A stretch of 26,040 bases of DNA, taken from IMG/VR virus record IMGVR_UViG_3300005466_000066, positions 1 through 26,040 of that record, one strand, 5' to 3'. The number at the start of each line of letters is the position of its first letter. Within the stretch, counting starts at the first letter, position 1. This stretch comes from a virus. A program made the translations under genes and the position numbers. Positions 7,341-25,354 of this stretch are shown piece by piece. The notes under the pieces are model-generated. The model saw only the letters and a program-made list of their open reading frames with translations, was not told where the DNA came from and did not search any database.

Positions 7341-7357
7341 GTAGAGTTTGTGTATCT

Positions 7358-11039: not shown

Positions 11040-12424
11040 TTGATCAAGCTCTCCTTCGGAGCGGTCTTCCGCCGCTTATCAAGGACTTCTTGAGTTACGC
11101 GGATAGAGGTTGTCAGCGCTCGTTGATCCGTGATTAGAGTGCAACGCTTCCGTGCGCGAGTGAGCGCTGTATACATGTTCTCGCGACACAGCATGTAGAA
11201 CACGGAATTGTTGATCACGTAGATGACGTGTTGATACTCCGATCCTTGCGCCTTGTGGACGGTGAGAGCGTACGCAAGTTCGATCTGACGCTGCGGATAC
11301 TGATCGATGATGATGCCTTTCTTCTCCCACCACTCTTCGTACATCGAAGGTATCTCGACAATTCGGTCCCCGAAATCAATCTCAAATCCTCCATCTGGAT
11401 ATATCTCCAGAACCTTGCCCGTTTCGCCGTTGAGCATGTACTTGGTTTCCGGAGTAGGTATGAAGCTGGAGAAATCAGGGCGTCCATCAGCATCCCACTG
11501 GTGAAAACGCTCTGAATAATTACGCATGTCGTATGTGTTCTCAGTGCAGACAACTTTGTCGCCAACTGAGATGGTGACAGGGTTCTTTGAGTCCCAATCA
11601 TACCGCATGAGGGAAGTAGGATCACGACCATCGGGGTTGAGCAAGCCTTGAAGCATGACATTGAGCGGCCCCGTACCGATCCAACGCGTTCGAAGCGGCG
11701 TGAGGATTTGGTTGTCGATGGATGCATAGTCGATGCCTTCTTCTAGGCTCTCCATGACCTGTTCGCGCAACCGATCTACCGGATAGTCGCTCAAGATCAT
11801 CTTGAAGTCGTTGCCGCGACGTGGAAGCCCGCCTTTGCGTACCATTGTAGCAGCAATGAGCACGTCTGAACCTTCGGCCTGACGGAACACCTCCGTGAGT
11901 TCGAAGAAGCAGTTCACACGTGAGCAGTGTTCCTTGAATGGCGATCCATTGGCGTTCTGGATCACGTACTTCTCAATTGGGGGGAGCTGTGCGAGGTCAC
12001 CAAACATGATCAGACGCCCTTTGGGAGGTAGTGCGTCAATGATGTTGCGGTTCAGCTCGTGATTGATCATCGAGTACTCATCGATGAGGATCACGGACTG
12101 ATCGAACGGATTGAACCGTCCACGCTTCGGTGTGGTGATGTCGAGGGGTTCGCCAGTTGTCTTGTCGCGTTCACCGGGACGCCCGTATTCGAGCAACTTG
12201 TGTACGGTTATCGCACGCAGACCCGTAGCTTCACGGATGCGTTTCGCGGCCTTACCAGTCGGAGCCGCAACGGCAAAGTTGACGTGCTGTGCCGCTAGTT
12301 GTTCAGCTATGTGTTTGATGAGGGTTGTTTTGCCAGTACCGGCCTGTCCCGTCACCGCGAACAAACGCCGCGATGTATCGAGACAGGCTTCGGCACATGA
12401 CAACTGTTGCGCAGACAGTTGCAT
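11036..12424 (-). CDS. RecD/Dda-like SF1B DNA helicase
   Basis: 462 aa. Motif I (Walker A) GQAGTGKTT at 26-34, motif Ia with AAPTGKAAKR, motif II with Leu-Ile-Asp-Glu-Tyr-Ser-Met, motif III GDLAQLPPI, motif V LTVHKAQGSEY and motif VI YTALTRAR are all in order. This is the layout of RecD2/T4 Dda-type 5'-3' DNA helicases, complete for a short phage member. Expected roles are unwinding at forks and removing proteins during replication or recombination. I chose ATG at 12424 because GGAG lies 6 nt upstream; the frame is open to a GTG at 12436. It overlaps the zinc-ribbon gene by 4 nt. Confidence 0.93.
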   Translation of the reverse strand: MQLSAQQLSCAEACLDTSRRLFAVTGQAGTGKTTLIKHIAEQLAAQHVNFAVAAPTGKAAKRIREATGLRAITVHKLLEYGRPGERDKTTGEPLDITTPKRGRFNPFDQSVILIDEYSMINHELNRNIIDALPPKGRLIMFGDLAQLPPIEKYVIQNANGSPFKEHCSRVNCFFELTEVFRQAEGSDVLIAATMVRKGGLPRRGNDFKMILSDYPVDRLREQVMESLEEGIDYASIDNQILTPLRTRWIGTGPLNVMLQGLLNPDGRDPTSLMRYDWDSKNPVTISVGDKVVCTENTYDMRNYSERFHQWDADGRPDFSSFIPTPETKYMLNGETGKVLEIYPDGGFEIDFGDRIVEIPSMYEEWWEKKGIIIDQYPQRQIELAYALTVHKAQGSEYQHVIYVINNSVFYMLCRENMYTALTRARKRCTLITDQRALTTSIRVTQEVLDKRRKTAPKESLIK

Positions 12425-12445
12425 GTCATTCTCCACGAGGGGGTG

Positions 12446-12763
12446 TTAAGTCCAGCCTGTTGTGTCAACCGGCTTCGATGTCTTGGCGGACTGAAAGGTC
12501 TGCCTGTGTTGCTCGTTGGCGATCTCTACTGCCGCGAACGCTGCACACCAACGAACGAACTCAGAGAACGATACTCCGAGACTCTCACTAACGCGGCATA
12601 GGCGCACGAATTCCTCATCAGTAAACCGAATACTGCGAGGCTTCGTCGGTTCCGCACCTGAGACGAAGAACCCACGGTTCACATGCTGCGTGGGCTGTGG
12701 GAAGGGGATTTGCACCCACTTTGCGTCGGGATGCAGCTTCGGAAGCTTGGGCTTGTTAGACAT
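12446..12763 (-). CDS. Ribbon-helix-helix-like DNA-binding protein
   Basis: 105 aa starting at 12763 behind CGGAGCGGCAAC. Residues about 40-80 match a ribbon-helix-helix: a strand with Ser-Ile-Arg-Phe-Thr, a helix beginning Asp-Glu-Glu-Phe, a turn Leu-Gly-Val-Ser, and a second helix Phe-Ser-Glu-Phe-Val-Arg-Trp-Cys. The N-terminus is Pro/Lys-rich and the C-terminus polar. Such proteins usually dimerise and bind palindromic operators. A 16-bp perfect palindrome lies 49 bp upstream of its start (12812-12827), which suggests but does not prove autoregulation. Confidence 0.7.
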   Translation of the reverse strand: MSNKPKLPKLHPDAKWVQIPFPQPTQHVNRGFFVSGAEPTKPRSIRFTDEEFVRLCRVSESLGVSFSEFVRWCAAFAAVEIANEQHRQTFQSAKTSKPVDTTGWT

Positions 12764-12811
12764 GTTGCCGCTCCGAAATGGAACAGCGCCGCCGTGGCTC
12801 AACTGGACACC

Positions 12812-12827
12812 ACGACAGCGCTGTCGT
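12812..12827. repeat. 16-bp perfect palindrome, possible operator
   Basis: ACGACAGCGCTGTCGT is its own reverse complement. It sits between the small basic gene and the ribbon-helix-helix gene. A second hairpin lies beside it (ACGCATC at 12830-12836 and GATGCGT at 12845-12851), just after the stop of the basic-protein gene. It could be an operator for the adjacent DNA-binding protein or, together with the neighbouring hairpin, a terminator or RNA processing site. No T-run is present. Confidence 0.5.
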
Positions 12828-12854
12828 CAACGCATCAGGACACGGATGCGTCGA

Positions 12855-13073
12855 TTAGGCTTCCGGAGAGATGACCAGAAGCTGCTCGCCGTTCGCGGTC
12901 GCCGTGCTGAAGTACTCGGCCATCTTGCGGGGATCGCGGAACGAGGCGGACAGGGCAACCTTGTTGCTCTCATCGATCTTGACGAAAGCATACAGCGGCG
13001 AAGGCTTGCGCGGACCCTGCGGGGCACGGCGCTTCTTCGGCTCGGTCGTGGTGGTGGCGGCATCTGCGGGCAT
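12855..13073 (-). CDS. Small basic hypothetical protein (72 aa)
   Basis: Start at 13073 preferred because AAAGGAGCTACCTCA precedes it. An in-frame ATG at 13100 lacks a ribosome site. The first 30 residues are Thr/Ala-rich, then strongly basic (Lys-Lys-Arg-Arg, Pro-Arg-Lys-Pro), suggesting nucleic-acid contact. The rest looks like a small folded domain with Leu-Tyr-Ala-Phe-Val and Lys-Met-Ala-Glu-Tyr-Phe. It is flanked by the ssDNA-binding candidate and the ribbon-helix-helix gene. Function unknown. Confidence 0.7.
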   Translation of the reverse strand: MPADAATTTTEPKKRRAPQGPRKPSPLYAFVKIDESNKVALSASFRDPRKMAEYFSTATANGEQLLVISPEA

Positions 13074-13159
13074 TGAGGTAGCTCCTTTACGGGGTGCCAT
13101 CTGGCGGTTCCCTATGACAGTGGTTGAACGAAGTGATTGTCACACAGTCCTACGAACAA

Positions 13160-13187
13160 GTCAACGGGGATTTCGGCCCCCGTTGAC
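13160..13187 (-). terminator. Hairpin after the DUF669-like gene
   Basis: A perfect 10-bp inverted repeat, arms 13160-13169 and 13178-13187 (GTCAACGGGG / CCCCGTTGAC) with an 8-nt loop, 26 nt past the leftward gene's stop. On the minus strand it is followed by TTGTTCG, a weak U-rich tract. This is probably a partial transcription terminator that tunes expression between the abundant DNA-binding protein and the helicase segment. Confidence 0.6.
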
Positions 13188-13213
13188 GAATTCTTCATAC
13201 GTGTGAACGGTGG

Positions 13214-13636
13214 TTAGATCGACTTGAGAGCACCGATCTGAGCGCGGGGTTCGCCCTCATACCGCTCGTGCTTGATGCCGACCTTGCAGGCGAGACCGAT
13301 CCATTCGGAGGGATCAACCCGCTTGCCCATCTTCGCGCCGATGGCCTCGCAGAACTTCCGCATGTTGTAGCGGCTGCGTGCGGTGTCCTCGACAACGAGA
13401 CGGTTGTACTGGAGAACGACGCCCTCCGGGTACAGTTCCTTGTTCGGATCGAAGTCTGCCGGGAAGTCGTCGGGCGAGATACGCAGGTCCACCGACAAGT
13501 AATCCTTGCCAGAAGTCTGCGACTGCTTCTGCGTGATCGCCTCGATGACCGCCGGATATTCGCCGACTTTCAGAGGCGGCGGTGCCTCTGCCGACGTGAT
13601 GTCAGAGCTGTATTCCAAAATCGGAAGATCGGACAT
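13214..13636 (-). CDS. DUF669-like putative ssDNA-binding protein
   Basis: 140 aa starting at 13636 behind GAAAGGTCAATAC. The frame extends to 13726 without a ribosome site. The sequence has Pro-Pro-Leu-Lys-Val-Gly-Glu-Tyr, then an OB-like beta-rich region (Asp-Tyr-Leu-Ser-Val-Asp-Leu-Arg-Ile), then Cys-Lys-Val-Gly-Ile-Lys-His-Glu near the C-terminus. This is the pattern of DUF669-type phage proteins encoded beside Sak4-like ATPases, which are thought to bind single-stranded DNA. It lies two genes after the Sak4-like gene and is bounded by a hairpin on each side, suggesting separate control. Family call from pattern recognition only. Confidence 0.68.
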   Translation of the reverse strand: MSDLPILEYSSDITSAEAPPPLKVGEYPAVIEAITQKQSQTSGKDYLSVDLRISPDDFPADFDPNKELYPEGVVLQYNRLVVEDTARSRYNMRKFCEAIGAKMGKRVDPSEWIGLACKVGIKHERYEGEPRAQIGALKSI

Positions 13637-13696
13637 GTATTGACCTTTCAGGTTTTCAACGTTGAACGCCGTGGACTGTACTACATACGAATGTGC

Positions 13697-13721
13697 GACA
13701 CAAGCCACGACATCTTGTGTC
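13697..13721 (-). promoter_or_regulatory. Leader hairpin with possible weak promoter upstream of DUF669-like gene
   Basis: The 116 bases between the 99-aa gene and the DUF669-like gene contain a perfect 8-bp inverted repeat (GACACAAG 13697-13704, CTTGTGTC 13714-13721, 9-nt loop). On the minus strand, TTGTGT inside the repeat lies 17 bp before TACAGT, a poor match to sigma-70 boxes. Either an operator over a weak promoter or a terminator for the upstream gene is possible. Confidence 0.35.
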
Positions 13722-13752
13722 CACATAAGACAGCCAACACTATTAGTGGTGG

Positions 13753-14052
13753 CTATTTGGAGAGGATTACGGTCATCTCACCCTTGGTCTCGTTGTATTT
13801 CTCGGTGAGACACTGTTCGATCCACGCATGTAGATGTAGCCGCATAGTCTTCTCGGACATTTCTAATGCGCGTAAGATGTCGTTGCCTTGCCCGTAGTCT
13901 CTGAACTTGATGTGATCGATGACGCAGGGGCCGACAAGAGGATCGTTATTATCGGCTTGTTCGTAGAGCTTGAGCGTCTTCATTGCCACATCGATGTCTT
14001 TGAGCTTCTTGTTCAGCCGGACTACATCTTCGGCTTCTTCAACCGTCCTCAT
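13753..14052 (-). CDS. Hypothetical protein (99 aa)
   Basis: Starts at 14052 behind TAGGAGCGACAC, 9 bp after the Sak4-like gene's stop. The first 35 residues are a charged amphipathic helix (Glu-Glu-Ala-Glu, Lys-Lys-Leu-Lys-Asp), followed by a segment with Cys-Val-Ile-Asp-His-Ile-Lys-Phe and a C-terminal helix. It is placed between a recombinase-type ATPase and an ssDNA-binding candidate, so a role as accessory or loader is conceivable, but there is no direct evidence. Confidence 0.7.
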   Translation of the reverse strand: MRTVEEAEDVVRLNKKLKDIDVAMKTLKLYEQADNNDPLVGPCVIDHIKFRDYGQGNDILRALEMSEKTMRLHLHAWIEQCLTEKYNETKGEMTVILSK

Positions 14053-14061
14053 GTGTCGCTC

Positions 14062-14958
14062 CTACGAGTAGAGTGGATACGCGGGAAGTTCCTTCTCGAA
14101 CCGCTTCACCAAGTTCATGTACACCTGTGAACCGGGAAGAGGCAGCTTGTCGCCAGTCAACTCCCACAACTTCAACCAAGTGTCGATACGGTACGGAAGG
14201 TTCTTCTTGTTGAACCAGTCGTCAGGATCAAACTTCCAGTCGAACTCTGGTTCATCACCCTGCCGAAACATGCGCGTCTTCATGGGCTTACGGAGACGTG
14301 CGGGACGGATCATGATGCGGCGGTCAGCTCGGTTGTCTACTTGGTACATCGCCCAGAGTTCCGAGAAGTCGATCCCGATGTTCGATGGCAACTGCCCGCC
14401 AAGCGCGAGTGATATGTGAAGTATTGCTCCGGTTTTTTCGTCTTTGTCGGGCGCTCCCTCGTGCGCGATCCAGATGACGTTTTTCTTGTGGACTCCTGTG
14501 ATCTTGGCGACGTTCTTAATAGCTCGGATTGCAAGCGCGTTTCGAGTACCGTACGCACCCGGAGAAGGTCGCTCGACAGTTGCTCCAGTATTCGTCGATA
14601 TTCCGCGAGTGAGGGTCTTGTCAGTGAGATTAGTAATGCTGTCAAATATATATGTGTCAACTGCCTCGATCGTGCTCTTGATCCCGAATGGGTTGCCTTC
14701 GTTCTTGCACTCATCAGCGAGCTTGTCAGTGGACGCTTGTGAGAGGTCAACACGTATAATTCCCTCCTTCTCGCACACCTCGTCAGAGATGCTGTCTACT
14801 CCATCAGGATCGAACTGATACCAGAGCTTCCGCCCCGGTGCCGTGCCCGCAAGTGTGGTCTTACCGCAGCCAGCATCACCCCATATTGCTCCGTTGAAGC
14901 GCTTGGCCGCTGCGGTGACCTTCTGAACTGGTTGTCCAGCGATGATTATCTCAGTCAT
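14062..14958 (-). CDS. Sak4-like RecA-fold ATPase (recombinase)
   Basis: 298 aa from the ATG at 14958 (AGAAGGACA upstream; the longer frame to 15054 reads through the neighbour without support). Walker A GDAGCGKTT at 27-35 follows the typical Gly-Ala-Ile-Trp strand. A Walker B strand, Thr-Tyr-Ile-Phe-Asp-Ser, lies near 102-107, and a later strand, Val-Ile-Trp-Ile-Ala-His-Glu, is near 165-171. This matches the AAA_24/Sak4 group of phage ATPases, short RecA relatives that promote single-strand annealing with their cognate ssDNA-binding protein. It overlaps the upstream 101-aa gene by 8 nt. Together with the nuclease and the DUF669-like protein it forms a recombination set. Confidence 0.88.
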   Translation of the reverse strand: MTEIIIAGQPVQKVTAAAKRFNGAIWGDAGCGKTTLAGTAPGRKLWYQFDPDGVDSISDEVCEKEGIIRVDLSQASTDKLADECKNEGNPFGIKSTIEAVDTYIFDSITNLTDKTLTRGISTNTGATVERPSPGAYGTRNALAIRAIKNVAKITGVHKKNVIWIAHEGAPDKDEKTGAILHISLALGGQLPSNIGIDFSELWAMYQVDNRADRRIMIRPARLRKPMKTRMFRQGDEPEFDWKFDPDDWFNKKNLPYRIDTWLKLWELTGDKLPLPGSQVYMNLVKRFEKELPAYPLYS

Positions 14959-15256
14959 TGTCCTTCTTCTCAGCTCCGAGTAAGAGTTGCTGCTTCGGTG
15001 CGTCGAGTACAATCGCACCGCGCACGTCCGACGTACACAATCGGCCGTACGCATCCTTCAAGAGCGTCCCTTCCCACGTCAAGTGGTCAAGACGCATGTG
15101 AGGCTTGGTTGTCGCGCCGTCTTCATACAAACGAACGAAACCACCAGCAGTCTTAGCGTACAAATAGCCGTCGCGTGTGTACACGTCGCACTGTTTGTAT
15201 ACTCCGTTGATCACGACGACACAAGCCTCACCTTCGACTTGTACGAAGAGGCCCAT
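14951..15256 (-). CDS. Conserved-looking hypothetical protein (101 aa)
   Basis: Starts at 15256 within a TAATG overlap. It is beta-rich: Gly-Glu-Ala-Cys-Val-Val-Val, Gln-Cys-Asp-Val-Tyr-Thr-Arg-Asp-Gly-Tyr-Leu-Tyr-Ala-Lys and Gly-Gly-Phe-Val-Arg-Leu suggest a small beta barrel. The last 10 residues are charged. It precedes the Sak4-like gene with overlap, and similar short beta-rich proteins are common next to such ATPases in phages. No function is established. Confidence 0.72.
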   Translation of the reverse strand: MGLFVQVEGEACVVVINGVYKQCDVYTRDGYLYAKTAGGFVRLYEDGATTKPHMRLDHLTWEGTLLKDAYGRLCTSDVRGAIVLDAPKQQLLLGAEKKDND

Positions 15257-15462
15257 TAGTTTGCTATTCCTCTCTTCGCCTTCAAGAGTGCTGCTGAACG
15301 CTTCACCAACTCTGCGTCGAGCACAAAGAAGTTGTAATCGTTGACCTGAATGCCGATTTCCTCCATCACGAGGGTGTTTGCAGTCAGTATCTCGTTGACC
15401 GCTGCGACCAGATCGGGATCGGTGTTCGGTGGCGCGACGATATCAGTTTCGAGTTTCGTCAT
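15256..15462 (-). CDS. Small helical hypothetical protein (68 aa)
   Basis: ATG at 15462 overlaps the upstream TGA and is preceded by GGAGTTCGCGTG. The in-frame GTG at 15465 is less likely. Predicted helices are separated by a short Asn-Asp-Tyr-Asn-Phe-Phe-Val-Leu strand, with a basic C-terminus. No known motif. It is co-translated with both neighbours. Confidence 0.68.
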   Translation of the reverse strand: MTKLETDIVAPPNTDPDLVAAVNEILTANTLVMEEIGIQVNDYNFFVLDAELVKRSAALLKAKRGIAN

Positions 15463-15680
15463 CACGCGAACTCCAAAGTTGGGCCATCCAGCGGGCCGAG
15501 ACCACCGAAGTTCACATGTGCGAGGACCGTGACCTTATCGATGCCGACAACGAAGTCGAAGCTGTCGAAGAACCACTTATGGTCTAGTGTCTCCTTCGCC
15601 AGCGCGGCATACCGACCGTTATCATACGCGATGAGATACGTGTCGTTGTTCTTGAGGGTGATGCCGTTCTTGATCGCCAT
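15462..15680 (-). CDS. Small hypothetical protein (72 aa)
   Basis: ATG at 15680 directly follows the nuclease stop with no gap, with AAGGAAACGGTTA upstream. It is beta-rich at the N-terminus (Asp-Thr-Tyr-Leu-Ile-Ala-Tyr-Asp) and has an aromatic segment Lys-Trp-Phe-Phe-Asp-Ser-Phe-Asp-Phe. No family recognised. Placement suggests a replication or recombination accessory. Confidence 0.68.
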   Translation of the reverse strand: MAIKNGITLKNNDTYLIAYDNGRYAALAKETLDHKWFFDSFDFVVGIDKVTVLAHVNFGGLGPLDGPTLEFA

Positions 15681-16784
15681 TTAACCGTTTCCTTCTTCTA
15701 GTGGTGACCATTCCTGTACCTGCATCTCGTTGAGCATTGCAATCCGTTCATCATCCGGACTATCGCAGAATGGGATCAGCGGGCAGGAACGGAAGTACCG
15801 ATTGCATGAGTGAGTGAACTGCGGCGCGTCGTGAGGCGTCTCAAGATAGTCCTTCGTCGTCTCACACGTATATACAACCCACTTGGCCCAACGAATAAAG
15901 TGATCCTGATTGCGCAGGATTGGCTCGTTGACGATACCGCCGTAGTCGAACGATTTCGGGATCGGGATGGACATGCCGCGTATGACCGCGTGCTCGACAT
16001 CTACATTGAGCAACGCACCGATGGCGAAGCAGTATCCCGTAGGCTGATGACTGGTGATGAATGCGTTGCGCCACGCATCATCGAGACGTGCCGCAGTCTT
16101 GTTCTCTTCGACCGCTATCTCGGACAGTTTACGGTCAGTGAAGTGTACACCGTCAACGCGACCGGTGAAGTTGTATCGGTGCGTCGGCCCTTCGTCAGAG
16201 TCGATTTCCAGATACATGTTGATCGGAATTTCGACACCGACGAAGTAGCCGCCGGGATATCGGTCGTCTGGTAGGATGACGGGTAAGGTCTGTCCGAGTG
16301 GATAGCGTGATACATACGCGATCAGACTTTCTTCGATGTTGGCGATTGTTCGCTTCCGGTCTCCGGGATCGTCGTAGAAGCCGCTTGATCCGAGGATGTC
16401 GAGGGCTGCGAGCGTAATGGCACGCTCTTTATCCTCGCCTTCCCACAGTACTCGCAGCATACTATTTGTTCGATCTTCTCCGAAGAGCTGACGGGATCGT
16501 TGCTCACATATGGATTGGACGAGCGAAGGGGAATACCGTCCGGAGTAAAACTCCCCACCCGACCAGTGTAGATCGCAGAGCCGGACTGCTGCAAACGCCT
16601 GATGCGCCGCGCCTCCCGCTTCAAGAGCCATTGCTCTATTCCCTGACAGATAAGTTCGATGATGTTCATAGCGGATGATGCCCCATGTTGGACATGTGTT
16701 GAGAGCGACAAGCTTGGTGTTGTCAAACTTGCGCTCGACTTGCTGTCCCGCGTACGGGACCATGCGTATATGTGTGATGGTCAT
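15681..16784 (-). CDS. PD-(D/E)XK nuclease, RecB/Cas4-like, with 4-Cys cluster
   Basis: 367 aa. The nuclease core shows H61 (Gly-Gly-Ala-Ala-His), D211 in GRVDGV, E227-N-K229 as the (D/E)-x-K motif, and a Gln-x3-Tyr at 247-251, as in RecB-family exonucleases. Cys31 near the N-terminus plus Cys327, Cys334 and Cys340 at the C-terminus have the spacing of the iron-sulfur cluster of Cas4/AddB-type enzymes. Expected role is resecting DNA ends to make single strands for the Sak4-like annealing system. ATG at 16784 overlaps the upstream TGA by 4 nt, with GGAG 11 nt before. The family is clear, the substrate polarity is not. Confidence 0.88.
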   Translation of the reverse strand: MTITHIRMVPYAGQQVERKFDNTKLVALNTCPTWGIIRYEHHRTYLSGNRAMALEAGGAAHQAFAAVRLCDLHWSGGEFYSGRYSPSLVQSICEQRSRQLFGEDRTNSMLRVLWEGEDKERAITLAALDILGSSGFYDDPGDRKRTIANIEESLIAYVSRYPLGQTLPVILPDDRYPGGYFVGVEIPINMYLEIDSDEGPTHRYNFTGRVDGVHFTDRKLSEIAVEENKTAARLDDAWRNAFITSHQPTGYCFAIGALLNVDVEHAVIRGMSIPIPKSFDYGGIVNEPILRNQDHFIRWAKWVVYTCETTKDYLETPHDAPQFTHSCNRYFRSCPLIPFCDSPDDERIAMLNEMQVQEWSPLEEGNG

Positions 16785-17035
16785 GTCGGTTCGCTCTCCA
16801 CAATTGCTCGCGTGGCGCGGGGATCGTCATCCTTGCGATCCATCTGCTCTTTCATCTTGTCGAGCACACCGTTCTGCATAGTGCTGACGTTCGTGAGTGC
16901 GGCCATCACAGCGCCGATTTCCTTGAGCGTCTTCTGTATGTCTTCGATCTCTTCTGCGAGCTGCAAGACGACTTCCTGCATACCGCGCTCATGCCCACGG
17001 TTCTTGAGCATGATGATGATGTCATTGGCTCTCAT
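16781..17035 (-). CDS. Coiled-coil hypothetical protein (84 aa)
   Basis: Starts at 17035 immediately after the upstream TAA, behind TGGAGTTCTAA. Residues about 18-70 form a charged heptad-like helix (Leu-Gln-Leu-Ala-Glu-Glu-Ile-Glu, Thr-Leu-Lys-Glu-Ile), and the tail is acidic and basic. It is probably an oligomeric helical protein, possibly partnering the adjacent coiled-coil gene. No enzymatic motif. Confidence 0.7.
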   Translation of the reverse strand: MRANDIIIMLKNRGHERGMQEVVLQLAEEIEDIQKTLKEIGAVMAALTNVSTMQNGVLDKMKEQMDRKDDDPRATRAIVESEPT

Positions 17036-17428
17036 TTAGAACTCCAATCCAGCTTGCAGCCGCAATGCGCGCATCTCATTGACACGCAGTTCAAGTTTGT
17101 CGAGGTTCTTGAAGACCTTATCGAGTTCATTCCACACTTGTTCGGCCTTCTTCACGAGCGCATCACGAGCTTTCGTCTGAGCGATCTGCTCTTTCTCCTG
17201 CTTCGTGCGTTCGTATATAAGTGTGGAATGCATACGCCGCAGCCTGACCAAATTGAGCAATTGGTCGAGCTGCGGATCCGTCATCTCATTGATAGTTTGG
17301 GGGGTGATGAAGTCGGGGATCACGACACCATCTGAGGGAGGTTCTGGAGCGTCATGCAGCCGTTGCTTTCGACGTTCTGCAAGATTGATGACCTTGCGGC
17401 CACCTTCTACATGAGTAGATTGATCCAC
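17036..17428 (-). CDS. Coiled-coil hypothetical protein, first gene of the replication operon
   Basis: 130 aa from a GTG at 17428, chosen because CAGGAGCGACAAC lies directly upstream. The frame is open to an ATG at 17551, but that reading would start at or before the predicted transcription start and translate through a large RNA structure. The N-terminus is basic (Glu-Arg-Arg-Lys-Gln-Arg), then Pro-rich. Residues about 50-130 are strongly helical with Lys/Glu heptads and an Arg-Leu-Arg-Arg stretch. It is the first gene behind promoter 17557-17585 and a structured leader, so its translation may be regulated. Function unknown. Confidence 0.72.
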   Translation of the reverse strand: MDQSTHVEGGRKVINLAERRKQRLHDAPEPPSDGVVIPDFITPQTINEMTDPQLDQLLNLVRLRRMHSTLIYERTKQEKEQIAQTKARDALVKKAEQVWNELDKVFKNLDKLELRVNEMRALRLQAGLEF

Positions 17429-17460
17429 GTTGTCGCTCCTGTTGATATGTATGAAGGGTA

Positions 17461-17549
17461 GGCTTCTGAGGGGTGGGAGGAGGAACCACCGATGACAAGT
17501 GAGAAGGAAGTAACTTGCGATCGGCCCGATAAATCGGCCCTCAGAAGCC
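17461..17549 (-). promoter_or_regulatory. Structured 5' leader RNA of the replication operon
   Basis: The minus-strand transcript expected from the promoter at 17557-17585 begins at about 17550. Its first bases (17549-17538, GGCTTCTGAGGG) pair perfectly over 12 bp with 17472-17461 (CCCTCAGAAGCC). Inside are a short hairpin at 17537-17526 (CCGA, loop TTTA, TCGG) and a 12-bp hairpin, arms 17524-17513 and 17500-17489, with one mismatch and a 12-nt loop. The 3' part carries CCTCCTCCC, complementary to Shine-Dalgarno sequences, and the gene's own AGGAG follows 30 nt downstream. The shape is a closed multi-branch structure at the extreme 5' end, suited to mRNA stabilisation or control of translation. 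No known riboswitch class is recognised. Confidence 0.65.
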
Positions 17550-17556
17550 ATTCTTA

Positions 17557-17585
17557 ATAATACAACACTATTGCGGGTTTGTCAA
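17557..17585 (-). promoter_or_regulatory. Consensus sigma-70 promoter for the replication operon
   Basis: On the minus strand TTGACA (17585-17580) is followed after exactly 17 bp by TATTAT (17562-17557). The -35 box is a full match and the -10 matches 5 of 6. It overlaps the stop codon of the preceding gene (TGA at 17584-17582). Predicted start about 17550, giving a 120-nt leader before the GTG at 17428. Host RNA polymerase should read it. Confidence 0.88.
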
Positions 17586-18028
17586 GTGCGCTTTAGTGAA
17601 ACGTTGTACGTCTCAGCGGGCTTGTTTTTCTTCCGCGCGTTGTTGATCGCAGTTTCGATCTTGTCGGCGTTGAGTCCAGCCTTCACGAGTTCTACACGCA
17701 GCAAACTCTCGTCAAGTGTAGTGGACGGAGCCTTCAGTGCGACGATACACGTGAAGTCTTGAGTGTCCAACAATTGTACACTGCTTCCCATGTTGAGCTT
17801 CTTGACGTTCTCGATCTCGGTAGCGACGATGCCTTGTGTGTCGAGCTTCTTGATGTCTTCGAGCGCCTTCTTCCGCCGCTTGTCGAACATGCTGCGGCCC
17901 ATCTCAGCGACGTAGTATTCATGGAGTACTTTGTTGGCCTTGTCTTGTGAGTTCGATGGCTCGAAATCGCCCGTCACGCCCAATAGGCTGAGTGCAGTTT
18001 GAAGCTTTGAAGCAAATTGTAAGTCCAT
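17582..18028 (-). CDS. Hypothetical protein (148 aa)
   Basis: Starts at 18028 behind ACAGGAGACATGTAG. It is mostly helical and charged: Asp-Lys-Arg-Arg-Lys-Lys-Ala-Leu-Glu-Asp near 49-58, a central strand Asp-Phe-Thr-Cys-Ile-Val-Ala-Leu, then a C-terminal helix ending in a basic tail. It is the last gene of the early operon before the replication promoter, and its final codons contain the -35 box. No family recognised. Confidence 0.72.
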   Translation of the reverse strand: MDLQFASKLQTALSLLGVTGDFEPSNSQDKANKVLHEYYVAEMGRSMFDKRRKKALEDIKKLDTQGIVATEIENVKKLNMGSSVQLLDTQDFTCIVALKAPSTTLDESLLRVELVKAGLNADKIETAINNARKKNKPAETYNVSLKRT

Positions 18029-18119
18029 CTACATGTCTCCTGTGTACGAGTTTCGTTAGTGCGAATGCGGCGATCACACATATGAGTATGATCGCCGCGA
18101 TGCGTGCGCTGTCATCCAT
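17919..18119 (-). CDS. Possible small single-span membrane protein (66 aa)
   Basis: ATG at 18119 shares its A with the TAA of the upstream gene (TAATG). After a short polar N-terminus, residues about 6-25 are a clear transmembrane helix (Ala-Ile-Ile-Leu-Ile-Cys-Val-Ile-Ala-Ala-Phe-Ala-Leu) followed by a basic His-Arg-Arg-His stop-transfer. The C-terminal half overlaps the next gene by 110 nt in another frame, so that tail may be unselected. The gene is plausible because it fills the otherwise empty 90 bases between neighbours. Confidence 0.5.
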   Translation of the reverse strand: MDDSARIAAIILICVIAAFALTKLVHRRHVDGLTICFKASNCTQPIGRDGRFRAIELTRQGQQSTP

Positions 18120-18649
18120 TATTCAACGTCGTCGTAGCCTGACACACGCGCCTCATCGGTGAAGTCGTTGCCGATGTCCACGTTGCGCCTGCCCCGCGCA
18201 GTTATACCCTTCTTACTTAAGTCGCGGATGATCTTCTCGTAATCCGCGAGTTTCTTGTTCGCCTCTTCAGCAGAGACCAAACCCAAGTCACGATCGATCT
18301 GCAACGCGACACGCTGGTCGGCTGTGTGATCCCGAAAGTTCTTGAGCCGTTCAGCCGCCTCTTCCAGCAGACCAGCGTTCCACTCGACCTTGGCGAGGAT
18401 CGGTTTGTTCACGCGAGCCAGCGCGGTAGCGTCACGCGGCGGGATCAGTCGCATCACCTCCACAAGGCCGAAGTGCTCGCCGTTGTGTACGAATGCAAGG
18501 TCGCCGACCTTCAATCCGTGTACATCGAGATAATAGTACGGCTTCTCCTGCGCACGCGATAGCTTGTGGATGCTGTTCGCGACCATATTGCGGAAGCACA
18601 CAGCGGCGACCTGAATGTTGATAGCATTCGGGTTATCTTCGATGCTCAT
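18119..18649 (-). CDS. Hypothetical protein (176 aa)
   Basis: Starts at 18649 behind AAGGAGAAGTCGAA, overlapping the HNH gene's stop by 4 nt. Residues about 35-90 have a small beta-barrel look: Lys-Val-Gly-Asp-Leu-Ala-Phe-Val, Gly-Leu-Val-Glu-Val-Met and a later Ile-Leu-Ala-Lys-Val-Glu-Trp strand. Residues 95-150 are charged helices, and the C-terminus is basic then acidic. No family recognised with confidence. Confidence 0.74.
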   Translation of the reverse strand: MSIEDNPNAINIQVAAVCFRNMVANSIHKLSRAQEKPYYYLDVHGLKVGDLAFVHNGEHFGLVEVMRLIPPRDATALARVNKPILAKVEWNAGLLEEAAERLKNFRDHTADQRVALQIDRDLGLVSAEEANKKLADYEKIIRDLSKKGITARGRRNVDIGNDFTDEARVSGYDDVE

Positions 18650-19152
18650 TTCGACTTCTCCTTACGTGTCTTGATTGCTGCTGTCTGACGCGCACGTCGC
18701 GCCCCGTTGATGATGTCCGATACACGTTGCTGCGTCACGATGATACCGAACTGCTCCGTGACTAATGCAGCGATTGCATCTTGTGGCATTCCCTCATCGC
18801 CCCACTTGAGTACACGCTCAAGCAGTCGAGTAGGGAACCCGTATCGGTCACGGTCGTACTTGTCGTTCTCGTTGTCAGATTGTGTACCGACGACGAGATG
18901 ATAGGGATTGCAGCAGATGGGATTGTCGCACTTGTGACGAACCTTGTCATCTTCATGCAGCGGCCCATGCACGAGTACATATATGAGCCGATACGCCAAC
19001 CACTTCACACCTGCTACACTGAAGTAGCCGCGCTGATCATCTGCGCGGCCACCAACTGATCCTGTCCAAGGCCAGCACGGCTTGGGATCACCGTCTTCTG
19101 GCATATCGACAAACTTGAACACGTCGATAGGTTCATTTCTCATTCGGATCAT
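18646..19152 (-). CDS. HNH endonuclease with C-terminal helix-turn-helix
   Basis: 168 aa from the ATG at 19152 (AAAGGAACGCCCTCC upstream; ATG at 19143 is an alternative). The HNH core reads Cys26-Trp-Pro-Trp-Thr-Gly, then a Tyr-Arg-Leu-Ile-Tyr helix, then H73-Lys-Cys75-Asp-Asn-Pro-Ile-Cys80, then N82-Pro-Tyr-H85-Leu. This is the zinc-dependent HNH type seen in phage homing enzymes. Residues about 118-152 look like a helix-turn-helix that could read target DNA. It overlaps both neighbours by 4 and 20 nt, so it is integrated in the operon rather than a recent free-standing insertion. Homing, host DNA degradation or packaging-related nicking are possible. Confidence 0.83.
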   Translation of the reverse strand: MIRMRNEPIDVFKFVDMPEDGDPKPCWPWTGSVGGRADDQRGYFSVAGVKWLAYRLIYVLVHGPLHEDDKVRHKCDNPICCNPYHLVVGTQSDNENDKYDRDRYGFPTRLLERVLKWGDEGMPQDAIAALVTEQFGIIVTQQRVSDIINGARRARQTAAIKTRKEKSK

Positions 19153-19516
19153 GGAGGGCGTTCCTTTCCCGTACTTCCTTGAGGCGTTGATACATTTCGT
19201 TATCGATGAACAACGCTGTCTGGATACGCTCTCGGTGTTCCTTGGACAGAGTTTCCGTGAGTCGTTGCCGCATGAGTTGAACGCGCCCAATCGTCAGCTT
19301 CCTGAGCACTTCATCTCGGAGTTCGAGGTCGAGAGCTGACAACATGCAGTGAGCGTGAACGACCGAGCCTGATAACGTCAGCACATTCACGTTCACTACG
19401 AGGTTGCCAGCCTTCGACCAATAGATGTACGGCTTCGATCCCGGAATGAGTTCCGATGTACAGTTATGTAGTCTTCCTTCTGCCTCGCGTAGATCGGGCA
19501 GTATTCGCGGTGTCAT
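19133..19516 (-). CDS. Hypothetical protein (127 aa)
   Basis: Starts at 19516 behind CAGGAGGATAAGG; the longer frame to 19612 lies within the upstream gene and lacks a ribosome site. The N-terminal half is beta-rich (Pro-Tyr-Ile-Tyr-Trp-Ser, Leu-Val-Val-Asn-Val-Asn-Val), and the C-terminal half is an Arg/Glu-rich helix. It overlaps the GHKL-like gene by 53 nt and the HNH gene by 20 nt. No family recognised. Confidence 0.7.
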   Translation of the reverse strand: MTPRILPDLREAEGRLHNCTSELIPGSKPYIYWSKAGNLVVNVNVLTLSGSVVHAHCMLSALDLELRDEVLRKLTIGRVQLMRQRLTETLSKEHRERIQTALFIDNEMYQRLKEVRERNALHDPNEK

Positions 19517-20780
19517 CCTTATCCTCCTGTGCGAGCGAGCGGCGGTTGAAGTAACGGCGGTGGCTCTTGATCTGCACGATGATCTCGCGCAGCAAGTGAT
19601 CCTGTAGGTCACGCGTCTCGTCTTTGTGGCCTTCGGTTATATGTATGAACTCTTCGAGTAGCGTGCAGGCCAGACATTCAAGTCCATTCGTGAAGTTGGC
19701 AGCGGCGATGTACATCTTGCGTTCCTCTGCCATGCCGAGAGCATTACCGGGGAGCTGGCCGACGAAGATGATGTCGATATCCTCGTGCTTCTCGATGTCG
19801 TAGCCACCGAACTTGAGCAAGTCGAGTGCATCATCGAACATGTCGCGTTCATCGCCGACGATCTTGCGCGCCTTCTTCGCGTCGGATGCGATCTTGGCGT
19901 CACGACAGTGGTTCTTCAGTCGCTCATTCATGTAGCGGCCATCGGAGTATGCTCGCATGACCATTTCGCGGTGCGCCGGTGCCCAATCGTCAGCACTGAG
20001 CCAACTGAATGGGCAGGCATCCCACTCCGCAGCCTCCGAGTTGTTGAGCACGCGCGCGAGTGCTTCGGTGGGGCACTCCCTCATCAAGAACTTCTCCAGA
20101 CGCGTGCCCATTGTATACGTATCCTTGAGCGTGCGGTCCTCTGTGAGGTCCATCGTCTGAAGGAAGTTGTATGTGTTGGCGAACTGCTTCCCGCTCTTGA
20201 TCTGATAGACTTTGATGCCACGGTAGTAGACGAACGAGGTCGGAGTGGGCTTGTACTCCCACGTATTCGGGAGTTCTTTCGCCTCTCCCGGTGTCATCTC
20301 GAAGAACAACGTCGCGCGTGTCTCGTCAATGAACGAAGCGAATGGTCTATCGTTCACTTCACCTTCCACGATGATGCGGACGACGTTCTTCGTGATCTGT
20401 GGGTATATCTCATCGCGTTGTATGCCCCCGCCCTCGTCACGAGCGTTGCATTCGAGTTCGCGGATCACAGTCCACAGTCTCCAATTCTTGCCGAGTTCCG
20501 TAGTGAATGGGAGTTCAAGCACACGATTACCATTCACCAGCACGACGAATGCGAATTCCTTGGAGCGGAACTTGTCGTGCTTCACGCCGAGATGCCACAC
20601 TTCACCAGTGCCATCCTGAATGGTGACCTTCAGGCCATAACGTGCGCACACAGCGAGCGCATACTTGAAGCCCGTACCGAAGTATCCGATCGGACTGTTG
20701 GTATTGGGCTTATCGTTCACGCCCAAGACGGTAACGGAACGCATGTCGAGCGTGCCGGGGTTCTCAAACCAAACGTACAT
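19464..20780 (-). CDS. GHKL-like ATP-binding protein, apparently permuted
   Basis: 438 aa starting at 20780 behind AAGGAATACACAT. Near the N-terminus, Glu-Asn-Pro-Gly (6-9), Val-Leu-Gly-Val-Asn-Asp-Lys (18-24) and IGYFGTGFKYA (31-41) look like the G1 region and G2 box of GHKL (Bergerat-fold) ATPases. A segment like their N-box, RELECNARDEGG (107-118), comes after them instead of before. The C-terminal third has an Asp-Ile-Asp-Ile-Ile-Phe-Val strand and Leu-Leu-Glu-Glu-Phe-Ile-His-Ile-Thr-Glu-Gly, a partial metal-site look without a full His-Glu-x2-His. Similar ATP-binding proteins occur in phages, with no known role. Fold call is moderate, permutation is my inference. Confidence 0.72.
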   Translation of the reverse strand: MYVWFENPGTLDMRSVTVLGVNDKPNTNSPIGYFGTGFKYALAVCARYGLKVTIQDGTGEVWHLGVKHDKFRSKEFAFVVLVNGNRVLELPFTTELGKNWRLWTVIRELECNARDEGGGIQRDEIYPQITKNVVRIIVEGEVNDRPFASFIDETRATLFFEMTPGEAKELPNTWEYKPTPTSFVYYRGIKVYQIKSGKQFANTYNFLQTMDLTEDRTLKDTYTMGTRLEKFLMRECPTEALARVLNNSEAAEWDACPFSWLSADDWAPAHREMVMRAYSDGRYMNERLKNHCRDAKIASDAKKARKIVGDERDMFDDALDLLKFGGYDIEKHEDIDIIFVGQLPGNALGMAEERKMYIAAANFTNGLECLACTLLEEFIHITEGHKDETRDLQDHLLREIIVQIKSHRRYFNRRSLAQEDKDDTANTARSTRGRRKTT

Positions 20781-20802
20781 ATGTGTATTCCTTCTCGGTT
20801 CA

Positions 20803-20829
20803 GCGGACGGAGGTTCCGTCTCCGTCCGC
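20803..20829. repeat. 10-bp hairpin before the GHKL-like gene
   Basis: Arms 20803-20812 and 20820-20829 (GCGGACGGAG / CTCCGTCCGC) pair perfectly with a 7-nt loop. It fills most of the 64-bp gap between the acidic-protein gene and the GHKL-like gene and lies 22 nt before the latter's start. No U-tract follows on the minus strand, so it may be a processing or stability element rather than a terminator. Confidence 0.6.
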
Positions 20830-20844
20830 GTGTTGAAGTCACTG

Positions 20845-21213
20845 TCAGATGGTAGGCACTAGATCGAGAGCGTTACCGTTGTGCGAGACGAAGATGTTGC
20901 TATCGTCACTCGTCCAATACAGCTCCCAATTGTCGTCGAATGTGATGCTGAACGTACGATGTCCCTCATCATCCATCCGTGTGTCGAGCCGAGTGTTCCC
21001 CTCATCGAAGAACAGACTCAAGTCCATACCTGTAGCATCGCCATCGGGTATGGTGTAGACGAGTGCTTCGTCTGGAGTTCCGGGAGTATCCGGAGTGACG
21101 AGAACAGGATCGTCCGTGTCGGTATCAGTGTCCACGTCGATGATCGGCGTGTCAGTGGGGATCACGTCCACATGCATGATGTGTTCACCATGCGATCCGC
21201 TTTCAAGTGCCAT
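20845..21213 (-). CDS. Very acidic hypothetical protein (122 aa), DNA-mimic candidate
   Basis: Starts at 21213 behind AAAGGGACTACCAAC. It has roughly 28 Asp/Glu against 3 Arg and no Lys, including an Asp-Thr-Asp-Thr-Asp-Thr-Asp-Asp run near residues 27-34, then a Pro/Asp linker and an apparently folded C-terminal domain with Trp-Glu-Leu-Tyr-Trp-Thr. Strongly acidic small early phage proteins often mimic DNA to block restriction enzymes or other DNA-binding host proteins (T7 Ocr is the classic case). That role here is inferred from charge and position only. No homology is claimed. Confidence 0.72.
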   Translation of the reverse strand: MALESGSHGEHIMHVDVIPTDTPIIDVDTDTDTDDPVLVTPDTPGTPDEALVYTIPDGDATGMDLSLFFDEGNTRLDTRMDDEGHRTFSITFDDNWELYWTSDDSNIFVSHNGNALDLVPTI

Positions 21214-21385
21214 GTTGGTAGTCCCTTTGCTTGCGTTCCTCTCTCATGAGGCGCACGAGTTCTAGTCTCTGACTTTCGATTGCGACAAGTTGCTCGTCAA
21301 GTTCGAGGCGGCGTATATACACACCAAGAAAACGCTCCGCCATTTCCATGATCTGACCGAACTGTCGGTATTCCAAGCTTCCCAT
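21203..21385 (-). CDS. Small coiled-coil hypothetical protein (60 aa)
   Basis: Starts at 21385 behind GAGGTGAAAG. Almost the whole length is an amphipathic, Glu/Arg/Leu-rich helix (Met-Ala-Glu-Arg-Phe-Leu, Leu-Glu-Leu-Asp-Glu-Gln-Leu, Leu-Val-Arg-Leu-Met-Arg). It overlaps the acidic-protein start by 11 nt and the upstream Cys-rich gene by 89 nt in a different frame. The protein-like composition and ribosome site argue that it is real. Confidence 0.6.
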   Translation of the reverse strand: MGSLEYRQFGQIMEMAERFLGVYIRRLELDEQLVAIESQRLELVRLMREERKQRDYQHGT

Positions 21386-21521
21386 CTTTCACCTCTATCC
21401 AATGGGGCCACTTCTGGCCTTTGCATTTACCTTTCCAAGGGCACGTTGGGCAGTCGCATCCACTGCGATACTCCCAACGATACCCTTTGCGTGCTTTACG
21501 TGGTGGCCTGTTCGATAACAA
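21297..21521 (-). CDS. Small Cys-rich basic protein (74 aa, TTG start)
   Basis: The start is a TTG at 21521, 9 nt after AAGGAGG, which itself lies in the last codons of the DUF932 gene whose TAG is two bases upstream. The N-terminus is basic and Pro-rich (Pro-Pro-Arg-Lys-Ala-Arg-Lys). Residues 22-33 hold Cys-x-Cys-x2-Cys-x5-Cys within an Arg/Lys/Trp-rich stretch, likely a zinc knuckle. The last 29 residues overlap the next gene out of frame. Nucleic-acid binding is plausible. No family recognised. Confidence 0.6.
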   Translation of the reverse strand: MLSNRPPRKARKGYRWEYRSGCDCPTCPWKGKCKGQKWPHWIEVKDGKLGIPTVRSDHGNGGAFSWCVYTPPRT

Positions 21522-21522
21522 G

Positions 21523-22428
21523 CTATGCAGCCTCCTTCATGAGTTCATCCCATGCACCGCTGACGAGCTGCGAACGAACAGCAGCCTCACGACCAAGCAT
21601 TGTGGTCGCAGCGTGGTCGTTGCCAGTCTTGCGAAGGGTGAAGTCACCGTCCGCGTGCGATGCGTAGTATGTCAGAGCGGAGTACAGCGCCCAGAAGTTG
21701 GTGCCGCCGCGTGACTTCTGCTCGATCAAGTACTGACGATACAACTTCGCGCCGAGACGATCGCCAAACTTCTCGTTCAGCCACTTGATCACCTTCTCGT
21801 CGTCCTTGATGGTGGTCTGCCGCATCTCGGTCCATAGTTCGCGATCCTTCCAGAACACGTCGATGGATTTGCGGACTTGATCACCAAACTTGGCGAGCTG
21901 CAAGCCCGTTGTGTGTCGTCCGTACTCACGAGTGTACTCGCCGCGTATGACTCCGTTCATACAGAAGAAGTCGATAGCGCCGGCGATCACCTTGATGGCA
22001 CTGCCGCCGAAGCCATTGAGCGCAATGATGCGGAAGCAAATCTTGTCGCGCTCCGGACTGTCGACCTTGATGTCGGGAAAGCGATACTCACGGATACATG
22101 TGCGCCCTTCGTACGCGATCTGCTCGAAGATTTCCGCGTTGTCGAATGCTTGCGTACCGACGCCTTCGCAGATGTTGCGGTCGATCTGTTCGAACAGGTC
22201 TTTGTTCTGCACGACCTTGTACGAGTCCTGCACGACGTTGAGGCAGACAGGCTGACCGTCTTTCATACGTACGAGCGCCTTGTGTCCGCTGTTGTTGTAC
22301 TTCGTGCCAGTCGCGCCCTCATACCAGAGCGGACGCTCATAGGCAACGAAATCGAGCGGCGACGGCTTGGACGGCGCGGTCTGCCGTAGTGGACGGTGTG
22401 CTACACCGAGAGAGACAACGTTCGTCAT
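21523..22428 (-). CDS. DUF932-family protein
   Basis: 301 aa starting at 22428 behind GAGGTGAAGTAAC. The sequence has the features of DUF932 phage and plasmid proteins: a N-terminal region with Gln-Asp-Ser-Tyr-Lys-Val-Val-Gln-Asn-Lys, a central Phe-Arg-Ile-Ile-Ala-Leu-Asn-Gly-Phe-Gly-Gly-Ser, then Phe-Phe-Cys-Met-Asn-Gly-Val, and a late Asn-Phe-Trp-Ala-Leu-Tyr-Ser-Ala-Leu-Thr-Tyr-Tyr-Ala-Ser-His segment. Members are widespread on phages and plasmids, often early-expressed, and have no settled function. Length is near the family norm. One base separates it from the upstream stop. Confidence 0.82.
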   Translation of the reverse strand: MTNVVSLGVAHRPLRQTAPSKPSPLDFVAYERPLWYEGATGTKYNNSGHKALVRMKDGQPVCLNVVQDSYKVVQNKDLFEQIDRNICEGVGTQAFDNAEIFEQIAYEGRTCIREYRFPDIKVDSPERDKICFRIIALNGFGGSAIKVIAGAIDFFCMNGVIRGEYTREYGRHTTGLQLAKFGDQVRKSIDVFWKDRELWTEMRQTTIKDDEKVIKWLNEKFGDRLGAKLYRQYLIEQKSRGGTNFWALYSALTYYASHADGDFTLRKTGNDHAATTMLGREAAVRSQLVSGAWDELMKEAA

Positions 22429-22429
22429 G

Positions 22430-22798
22430 TTACTTCACCTCTTTGATTGTCGGCAGCTCGATCTCTACGAAGCCGAGACCACCGATGAATGTCACTTCCT
22501 GCGTCTTGAACTTGTGGTTCGGCAGGCCGAGCTGCTTCGGATACACACCAGCAACACAGTTGTTCCCTCTGCGCGTCAGTGCGTAGCCGTCGTCTGCTGC
22601 TACAAGACGGATCAAGCCTACATCACGCCCTGTGCCGAGCATGAGCTTGACCTTCGTAGTACCACGAAGATGTGCGTCAACGACATCCGCTGAAAGAGAG
22701 ACGCGGACATTCCTGCCGTTGTTGTTGGTCATCGTGATGCGCTGCTTTGACTTAACATGTGGGCTGAATGAGCCCTTCTTCACTTCCTCGAAACTCAT
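22430..22798 (-). CDS. Hypothetical protein (122 aa)
   Basis: Starts at 22798 behind GAAAGGATCCGACAC, overlapping the upstream TGA by 4 nt. It is beta-rich and basic in the first half (Lys-Ser-Lys-Gln-Arg-Ile-Thr-Met, Asn-Val-Arg-Val-Ser-Leu-Ser), with Leu-Met-Leu-Gly-Thr-Gly-Arg-Asp-Val-Gly-Leu-Ile and a C-terminal Glu-Ile-Glu-Leu-Pro. It is co-translated with DUF932. No family recognised. Confidence 0.72.
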   Translation of the reverse strand: MSFEEVKKGSFSPHVKSKQRITMTNNNGRNVRVSLSADVVDAHLRGTTKVKLMLGTGRDVGLIRLVAADDGYALTRRGNNCVAGVYPKQLGLPNHKFKTQEVTFIGGLGFVEIELPTIKEVK

Positions 22799-23034
22799 GT
22801 GTCGGATCCTTTCACATGTATGATGTCTTCGTGTCCGTCGTCGTAGATGGTGACACGATCGATACTTCCATCATCTTGTAACGACAAGTATGTACCCTGC
22901 CACTGTGAGTAGGGCAGGGATTGATTACGCACGGCTGTCCAAACATGCCAACAGCCGCGCCCCCGAAAGAGCGCGGCTAGTCGTGTGCCGATTGGAAGCC
23001 CGATGCGATCACGTATCAGGTCCAAGTAGTTCAT
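22795..23034 (-). CDS. Small hypothetical protein (79 aa)
   Basis: Starts at 23034, just after the upstream TAA. The ribosome site is weak, so coupling is likely. An N-terminal amphipathic helix is followed by Gly-Cys-Trp-His-Val-Trp-Thr-Ala and beta strands with Thr-Tyr-Leu-Ser-Leu and Val-Thr-Ile-Tyr. Four-base ATGA overlap with the following gene. Function unknown. Confidence 0.65.
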   Translation of the reverse strand: MNYLDLIRDRIGLPIGTRLAALFRGRGCWHVWTAVRNQSLPYSQWQGTYLSLQDDGSIDRVTIYDDGHEDIIHVKGSDT

Positions 23035-23037
23035 CAG

Positions 23038-23505: not shown

Positions 23506-23506
23506 T

Positions 23507-23587
23507 TCACTTCTCTCCACGTTGTGCTCTGCTGATTGCTATCAGCGCGGCTTCCCAAATGTCGTAGCAGTTGCCGGGGCCAGTCAT
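23507..23587 (-). CDS. Tiny ORF (26 aa) in the overlapping chain
   Basis: ATG at 23587 overlaps the upstream TGA by 4 nt (ATGA), and its own TGA ends 1 nt before the next ATG at 23505. The peptide reads Met-Thr-Gly-Pro-Gly-Asn-Cys-Tyr-Asp-Ile-Trp-Glu-Ala-Ala-Leu and ends basic. Its last codons supply the GGAG ribosome site for the next gene, so it may serve translational relay as much as encode a product. Real as a reading frame, uncertain as a protein. Confidence 0.45.
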   Translation of the reverse strand: MTGPGNCYDIWEAALIAISRAQRGEK

Positions 23588-23763: not shown

Positions 23764-23767
23764 GGCT

Positions 23768-24753: not shown

Positions 24754-24754
24754 C

Positions 24755-25003: not shown

Positions 25004-25072
25004 GTGTAATCTCCATATGTGTGAATGCCCAAAGTCGAGAGCGTGTGAGTAGTACTCTTCACGCCCATTGTT

Positions 25073-25101
25073 AGTATAGCATAAGTTGTAGCAGTTGTCA
25101 A
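25073..25101 (-). promoter_or_regulatory. Consensus sigma-70 early promoter
   Basis: On the minus strand TTGACA (25101-25096) and TATACT (25078-25073) are separated by exactly 17 bp. The -35 is perfect and the -10 matches 5 of 6. Predicted start about 25066, giving a 60-nt leader to the ATG at 25003. It shares the extended -35 context (C-TTGACA-A) with the promoter at 17557-17585. It should drive the leftward early operon with host RNA polymerase. Confidence 0.9.
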
Positions 25102-25291: not shown

Positions 25292-25303
25292 TATTTCAGG
25301 CAC

Positions 25304-25337: not shown

Positions 25338-25354
25338 GTGGTGGTGAGCTGCGA

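What the first reader, a model, noticed from the sequence alone, without database searches (positions are those of the whole stretch)
17429..17585. Strong promoter feeding a closed, multi-hairpin 5' leader RNA
A consensus sigma-70 promoter starts transcription at about 17550, exactly where a 12-bp perfect inverted repeat begins (17549-17538 with 17472-17461). The enclosed RNA forms two further hairpins, one of 11 pairs over 12 positions, and carries CCTCCTCCC, an anti-Shine-Dalgarno-like tract that could pair with the downstream AGGAG at 17440-17436. The 5' end of the mRNA would be locked in a stem. This looks like a dedicated RNA element controlling stability or translation of the replication operon, and it matches no riboswitch class I know.
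Basis: partly seen in the sequence, partly recalled or inferred. Interest (0 to 1): 0.65.

Follow-up and report, generated by a model that had tools for sequence, protein, structure and literature searches.

The report
Phage promoter with 5'-closed structured leader
In an uncultured soil phage, a strong promoter in front of the DNA-replication genes makes an mRNA whose first ~90 bases fold into a closed hairpin structure; close relatives build an equivalent structure from different sequence at the same spot, so it most likely works as a protective cap that keeps the mRNA from being degraded, a known kind of device.

Summary
A near-consensus sigma-70 promoter (TTGACA-N17-TATTAT, 17585-17557, minus strand) is followed, at the predicted start, by a ~90-nt RNA closed by a perfect 12-bp stem. 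The 91-nt domain folds at -41.3 kcal/mol (z -5.8, 0 of 200 shuffles); a 5'-terminal helix this strong arose in none of 3000 shuffles. Rfam has no match.

The anti-Shine-Dalgarno idea fails: pairing probability 3e-7, and forcing it costs 9.4 kcal/mol.

In the two nearest relatives with the same gene order (L006 and L156), the orthologous spot has another consensus promoter and a 5'-closed domain of unrelated sequence (z -5.4 and -5.9). In-frame stops show it is non-coding there. L003 is similar but weaker. Other strong promoters of this phage branch, including the window's only other one (-35 at 25101), also tend to have a helix at the start site (KS p about 0.0005, group chosen after inspection); distant relatives show no clear excess.

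Most likely it is a 5'-terminal stem-loop leader of the ompA/papA or T7 gene-10 type, shielding the mRNA 5' end and leaving an open linker for the ribosome. It is not a riboswitch. Function is inferred; no transcript data exist.

The parts
17557..17585 (-). sigma-70-type promoter: TTGACA (17585-17580), 17-nt spacer, TATTAT (17562-17557); -35 overlaps the stop codon of the upstream gene
   Evidence: an equivalent promoter TTGACA-N17-TATTAT lies 15 nt after the orthologous stop codon in L006
17459..17549 (-). 5'-closed leader RNA domain (predicted transcript start about 17551-17549)
   Evidence: MFE -41.3, z -5.8, 0/200 shuffles; 5' helix 0/3000 shuffles
17538..17549 (-). 5' arm of the 12-bp closing stem
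17461..17472 (-). 3' arm of the 12-bp closing stem
17429..17460 (-). weakly structured linker with Shine-Dalgarno AGGAG (17440-17436)
17036..17428 (-). first gene of the transcript (130 aa, GTG start; conserved small protein 'SP', function unknown, no Pfam or PHROGs match)
17582..18028 (-). upstream gene 'P148' (148 aa, conserved, function unknown)
15681..16784 (-). downstream conserved gene of the replication block (367 aa; no database match, likely nuclease by context, my inference); followed by Sak4-like annealing protein 14062-15054, SSB 13214-13726, helicase 11036-12436, DNA polymerase 7721-10246
25073..25101 (-). the window's only other 11/12 sigma-70 promoter (TTGACA-N17-TATACT, extended -10)
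25037..25067 (-). hairpin at the predicted start of that second promoter
   Evidence: MFE -13.2, z -3.9, 0/200 shuffles

Best explanation
It is a 5'-terminal stem-loop leader on an internal host-sigma-70 promoter of the phage replication operon. Transcription starts at the base of the 12-bp stem, so the triphosphate 5' end is in or beside a stable helix with 0-2 unpaired bases. That should block 5'-end-dependent decay (RppH conversion then RNase E, or RNase J in a Gram-positive host). The ~32-nt linker carrying the SD keeps the ribosome site clear of the structure. The result would be a long-lived mRNA for SP, the 367-aa protein, Sak4, SSB, helicase and polymerase. Shown: promoter motif, fold, non-chance 5' helix, equivalent architecture at the orthologous place in relatives. 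Inferred: the actual start site, RNA protection, operon extent.
For: 5' helix at the predicted start, 0/3000 shuffles; domain z -5.8; 5' pairing holds for every tested start from 2 nt upstream to 5 nt downstream of 17550. L006 and L156 have a consensus promoter plus a 5'-closed domain (z -5.4, -5.9) and a weakly structured linker before the SD, with no sequence similarity to the window. In L156/L157 the promoter is 100% and the leader domain 95% identical, the linker 76%, the upstream gene 90%, and all pairs are kept. In the window plus G001-G006, 18 strong promoters show helix excess at the start site (KS p about 0.0005) and not 20 or 40 nt downstream. The intrinsic-terminator scan lists none at the closing stem. 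Precedent: a 5' hairpin stabilises bla mRNA and impedes RppH; the ompA and papA leaders work this way (PMC3997798 and its refs 92-95).
Against: No 5'-end mapping, decay or expression data; the host is unknown, so the decay pathway is unknown. The 'close branch' group was chosen after looking; distant relatives show no clear excess (KS 0.14-0.25), and the added genome G024 gives only Fisher p 0.07-0.14 on four promoters. The L003 leader is less clearly closed (z -2.8 with hand-chosen ends; p 0.16 for the closing helix). The two-hairpin interior is more elaborate than end protection requires. The SD is only partly open in the predicted ensembles (mean unpaired about 0.5 in the window and 0.66 in L006).
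Confidence: 0.5

Rival explanations
1. put-like antitermination RNA: the nascent leader binds host RNA polymerase and makes it ignore downstream terminators in the long replication operon.
For: Same place as HK022 putL (directly after an early promoter), similar size (~70-90 nt), hairpins only, no protein needed (PMC9378689).
Against: put is two side-by-side stem-loops and HK022 putL/putR share sequence; this one is a closed multibranch domain, and the leaders of the window, L006, L003, L043 and L049 share no sequence. An RNA recognised by polymerase should conserve sequence.
Confidence: 0.1
2. RNase III (double-strand) processing site, as in T7 early/late mRNAs: the long stem is cut to release monocistronic, hairpin-ended mRNAs from readthrough transcripts.
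For: 18 of 33 distinct relatives have a hairpin of 10 or more pairs within 75 nt after the upstream gene's stop codon, in most cases with no strong promoter before it, so a hairpin at this junction is a family habit.
Against: In the window and L006 the stem begins at the predicted start site, so primary transcripts gain nothing from a cut; the 12-bp uninterrupted stem is short for RNase III (about 20 bp usual, my knowledge).
Confidence: 0.12
3. Binding site for a phage protein (for example SP, SSB or polymerase) that autoregulates translation, as T4 gp32 and gp43 do.
For: Leader sits ahead of replication genes; T4 gp43 binds a hairpin about 40 nt upstream of its start codon (PMC3014915).
Against: No conserved loop or sequence between the window and L006; the structure lies outside the SD region.
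Confidence: 0.12
4. Anti-SD translational switch: CCTCCTCCC pairs with AGGAG.
For: Both tracts exist.
Against: P = 3e-7; forcing costs 9.4 kcal/mol; by inspection no equivalent in L006.
Confidence: 0.03
5. The region is coding: translation starts at ATG 17551 and makes a 171-aa N-terminally extended protein.
For: Open frame from 17551 through 17428.
Against: The frame has many stops in the L006 and L156 leaders; homology begins at the GTG-start protein; there is an SD before the GTG, and ATG 17551 would lie at the very 5' end of the predicted transcript.
Confidence: 0.04
6. Palindrome acts at DNA level (operator or looping site) and the RNA fold is a by-product.
For: Perfect 12-bp repeat adjoining the promoter.
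Against: Inner hairpins are also paired; L006 has different repeat sequence and spacing; no shared operator motif.
Confidence: 0.06

Closest known systems
E. coli ompA / papA 5'-terminal stem-loop mRNA stabilisers (PMC3997798, refs 92-95)
   Same: Hairpin at the extreme 5' end with few or no unpaired bases, followed by a less structured region with the SD
   Different: Larger, multibranch domain; phage replication operon; stabilisation not measured; no sequence relation expected or seen
T7 gene 10 leader (phi10; my own knowledge)
   Same: Promoter directly followed by a start-site hairpin, an AU-rich linker and a strong SD
   Different: Host sigma-70 promoter instead of T7 RNA polymerase promoter; longer closed domain; several relatives with unrelated sequences
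HK022 putL (PMC9378689)
   Same: Structured nascent RNA immediately after a phage early promoter, ~70 nt
   Different: putL is two adjacent stem-loops and shares sequence with putR; here one closed domain with no conserved sequence
T4 gene 43 / gene 32 translational operators (PMC3014915)
   Same: Leader structure ahead of replication genes in a phage
   Different: There the structure is next to or includes the ribosome site and binds its own product; here the SD is outside and no conserved motif exists

Membership tests
5'-terminal stem-loop mRNA stabiliser | Strong helix at the transcript 5' end | tested here: met
   Predicted start; 0/3000 shuffles; holds over 8 start positions
5'-terminal stem-loop mRNA stabiliser | Few or no unpaired 5' nucleotides | tested here: inconclusive
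   0-2 unpaired for starts 17549-17551, 3 at 17552, but the start is predicted, not mapped
5'-terminal stem-loop mRNA stabiliser | Longer mRNA half-life, lost when the stem is broken | not testable with these tools
   Needs decay assay
5'-terminal stem-loop mRNA stabiliser | Structure rather than sequence conserved | tested here: met
   Window vs L006/L156 vs L003 at the same locus: different sequences, all 5'-closed, L003 weaker
Riboswitch / Rfam leader family | Match to a known covariance model | tested here: not met
   No gathering hit in the window; at relaxed threshold only two snoRNA models on the other strand, E 0.55-0.8, far below cut-off
HK022 put antitermination RNA | Two adjacent stem-loops with conserved sequence | tested here: not met
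   One closed multibranch domain; no sequence shared between leaders
RNase III processing site | Cleavage in the stem by RNase III | not testable with these tools
   12-bp uninterrupted closing stem only
Anti-SD translational switch | Stable alternative pairing of the SD | tested here: not met
   P 3e-7, +9.4 kcal/mol
Intrinsic terminator / attenuator | GC hairpin followed by a U tract | tested here: not met
   3' arm is followed by TACCCTTCATAC; not listed

The most novel reading that the evidence does not exclude
One branch of uncultured ~43-47 kb soil phages puts a 5'-closed RNA structure at the start of most strong sigma-70 transcripts. The sequences are free to change but the 5' end must be paired, giving a genome-wide, structure-only mRNA capping strategy that replaces itself quickly, while a sister branch uses an unpaired purine-rich 5' leader instead.
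Probability: 0.25. Interest if true: 0.5.

Novelty: new member of a known kind. Interest (0 to 1): 0.3.

Why it matters
If right, it is a natural example of a phage protecting its replication mRNA with a 5'-terminal hairpin that is conserved in position and shape but not in sequence. Sequence-based RNA searches miss such elements, so they may be common in uncultured phages; it could also supply compact mRNA-stabilising leaders. It does not change the picture of phage gene control in principle.

Tried and rejected
Rfam scan at both thresholds: nothing. Phage-record search by DNA and protein: no relative of the leader, the 367-aa protein, the Sak4 protein or the 1368-aa protein (2330-6436); the polymerase only at about 26% identity to Desulfofustis, Microcystis and Caulobacter phages. 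Exact search for the inverted repeat in IMG/VR: only the near-identical contig, and L153, an unrelated contig with a repetitive CTTCTGAGG tract. Anti-SD pairing and leader-as-coding were tested and rejected. The L003 long-range closing helix alone is not significant (p 0.16). Family-wide start-site helix enrichment: clear in the near branch only; distant relatives not significant. Genome collection scan for hosts or prophages found no relative. A covariance model was not built because the leaders of different phages cannot be aligned. The fold given for L162 used wrong end points and is ignored; one search shows that leader from its start site.

Full report
Setting. The window is a 26,040-base IMG/VR virus record. 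Genes on the minus strand form a replication block: 148-aa gene P148 (17582-18028), then the leader, small protein SP (17036-17428), an 84-aa gene, a 367-aa protein, Sak4-like protein, SSB, Dda-like helicase and DNA polymerase. No cultured phage in the collection is close: no match for the 367-aa, Sak4 or 1368-aa proteins, and the polymerase matches only at about 26%. The 53 IMG/VR relatives found with the 367-aa protein mostly keep the order P148 - SP - 367-aa protein.

Observation. The fold is far more stable than shuffles: z -4.1 for 17429-17550 and z -5.8 for the core domain. The helix anchored at the predicted start was reached in 0 of 3000 shuffles. The promoter is one of two 11/12 matches in 7000-26040, while matches at the looser 9/12 threshold are no more frequent than in shuffles.

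Same place in relatives. In L006 (66% identical over the aligned 367-aa protein) the junction between P148 and SP carries TTGACA-N17-TATTAT and then ACAAG.ACCCCCCAA...TTGGGGGGT....CTTGT, a 5'-closed domain of about 82 nt, followed by an AU-rich linker, an SD and ATG. Its sequence is unrelated to the window's. L156, a 92%-identical cousin of L006 (L157 is the same contig as L006), keeps the promoter 100% and the leader domain 95%, against 90% in the upstream gene and 76% in the linker. The L156/L157 differences in the domain are two stem changes that keep pairing (U-A/U-G), one loop insertion and one insertion beside a stem; all compared pairs remain standard. This is consistent with a selected structure, but there is no both-sided change, so it is not proof. 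L003 (43%) has TTGACA-N17-TATACT and a roughly 190-nt leader ahead of SP; a 5'-closed fold is possible (z -2.8, ends chosen by hand) but its closing helix alone is not significant. L155 (SP 58% identical) has no promoter there; its promoter lies upstream of P148 and is followed by a hairpin close to the start site.

Other promoters. The window's second strong promoter (25101-25073) is followed by a hairpin at the start site (z -3.9). In L049 (two promoters), L043, L089, L093, L099, L100, L102 and L163 hairpins also sit at or near the predicted start. Over 18 promoters of the window and G001-G006, helices at the start site exceed shuffles (KS p about 0.0005), with no excess 20 or 40 nt downstream. 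For all 47 promoters scored as intergenic it is weaker (KS 0.01-0.03), and for the other genomes alone it is not significant. The near group was chosen after inspection, and the added genome G024 gives only a trend. Several distant relatives instead begin with an unpaired purine-rich ACAATGARRAAAGGA leader.

Junction hairpins. In 18 of 33 distinct relatives a hairpin of 10-16 pairs follows the P148 stop codon within 75 nt, mostly without a strong promoter before it and without a clear U tract. The junction is therefore a habitual site of structure; in the window and L006 it coincides with a promoter.

Mechanism. The SD lies outside the closed domain, and the proposed anti-SD pairing is negligible. 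The leader is not coding in relatives and is not a terminator. What is conserved is a paired 5' end and a linker ahead of the gene, not sequence. That is what a 5'-end protector needs and what a ligand- or polymerase-binding RNA would usually not show. Published precedent: appending a 5' hairpin stabilises bla mRNA and impedes RppH, and B. subtilis RppH needs at least two unpaired 5' nucleotides (PMC3997798). I put 0.5 on this reading. put-like antitermination (PMC9378689), RNase III processing and protein-mediated autoregulation (PMC3014915) remain open at about 0.1 each.

Verdict. A real, non-chance, positionally conserved structured leader; most likely an ordinary kind of device (5'-terminal stabilising stem-loop) in an undescribed phage lineage. 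The riboswitch-like and anti-SD readings are not supported.

Noticed in passing
window 25037-25101 (-) and 25308-25337 (-): Second strong extended -10 promoter with a hairpin at the start, placed downstream of a good intrinsic terminator (AAACCCCCGAGCCGAAAGGTTCGGGGGTTT followed by a T run) that ends the 25355-26011 gene.
   Followed up: partly
L009, L013, L014, L015, L020, L032, L033, L039 upstream of P148: Distant relatives start the P148 transcript with a conserved purine-rich motif, about ACAATGARRAAAGGA, directly at the predicted start site, unpaired in most; function unknown, perhaps a standby ribosome site.
   Followed up: partly
junction after P148 in 18 of 33 relatives (for example L022:2279+, L019:2236+, L009:4054+): Perfect or near-perfect 10-16-bp intercistronic hairpins of unrelated sequence, mostly without a U tract, followed by a small gene (~70-90 aa) absent from the window and L006.
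   Followed up: partly
L003:3940-3985: Very stable hairpin (GCGCGCCGACCTGTACACGTGTGCAGGTCGGTGTGCGC) between the upstream gene and the L003 leader promoter, without a T run.
   Followed up: no
window 21523-22428 (-): DUF932-family protein (Pfam E 2.6e-6); its L003 counterpart (2665-3606) sits between P148 and SP, so the gene moves around the junction.
   Followed up: no
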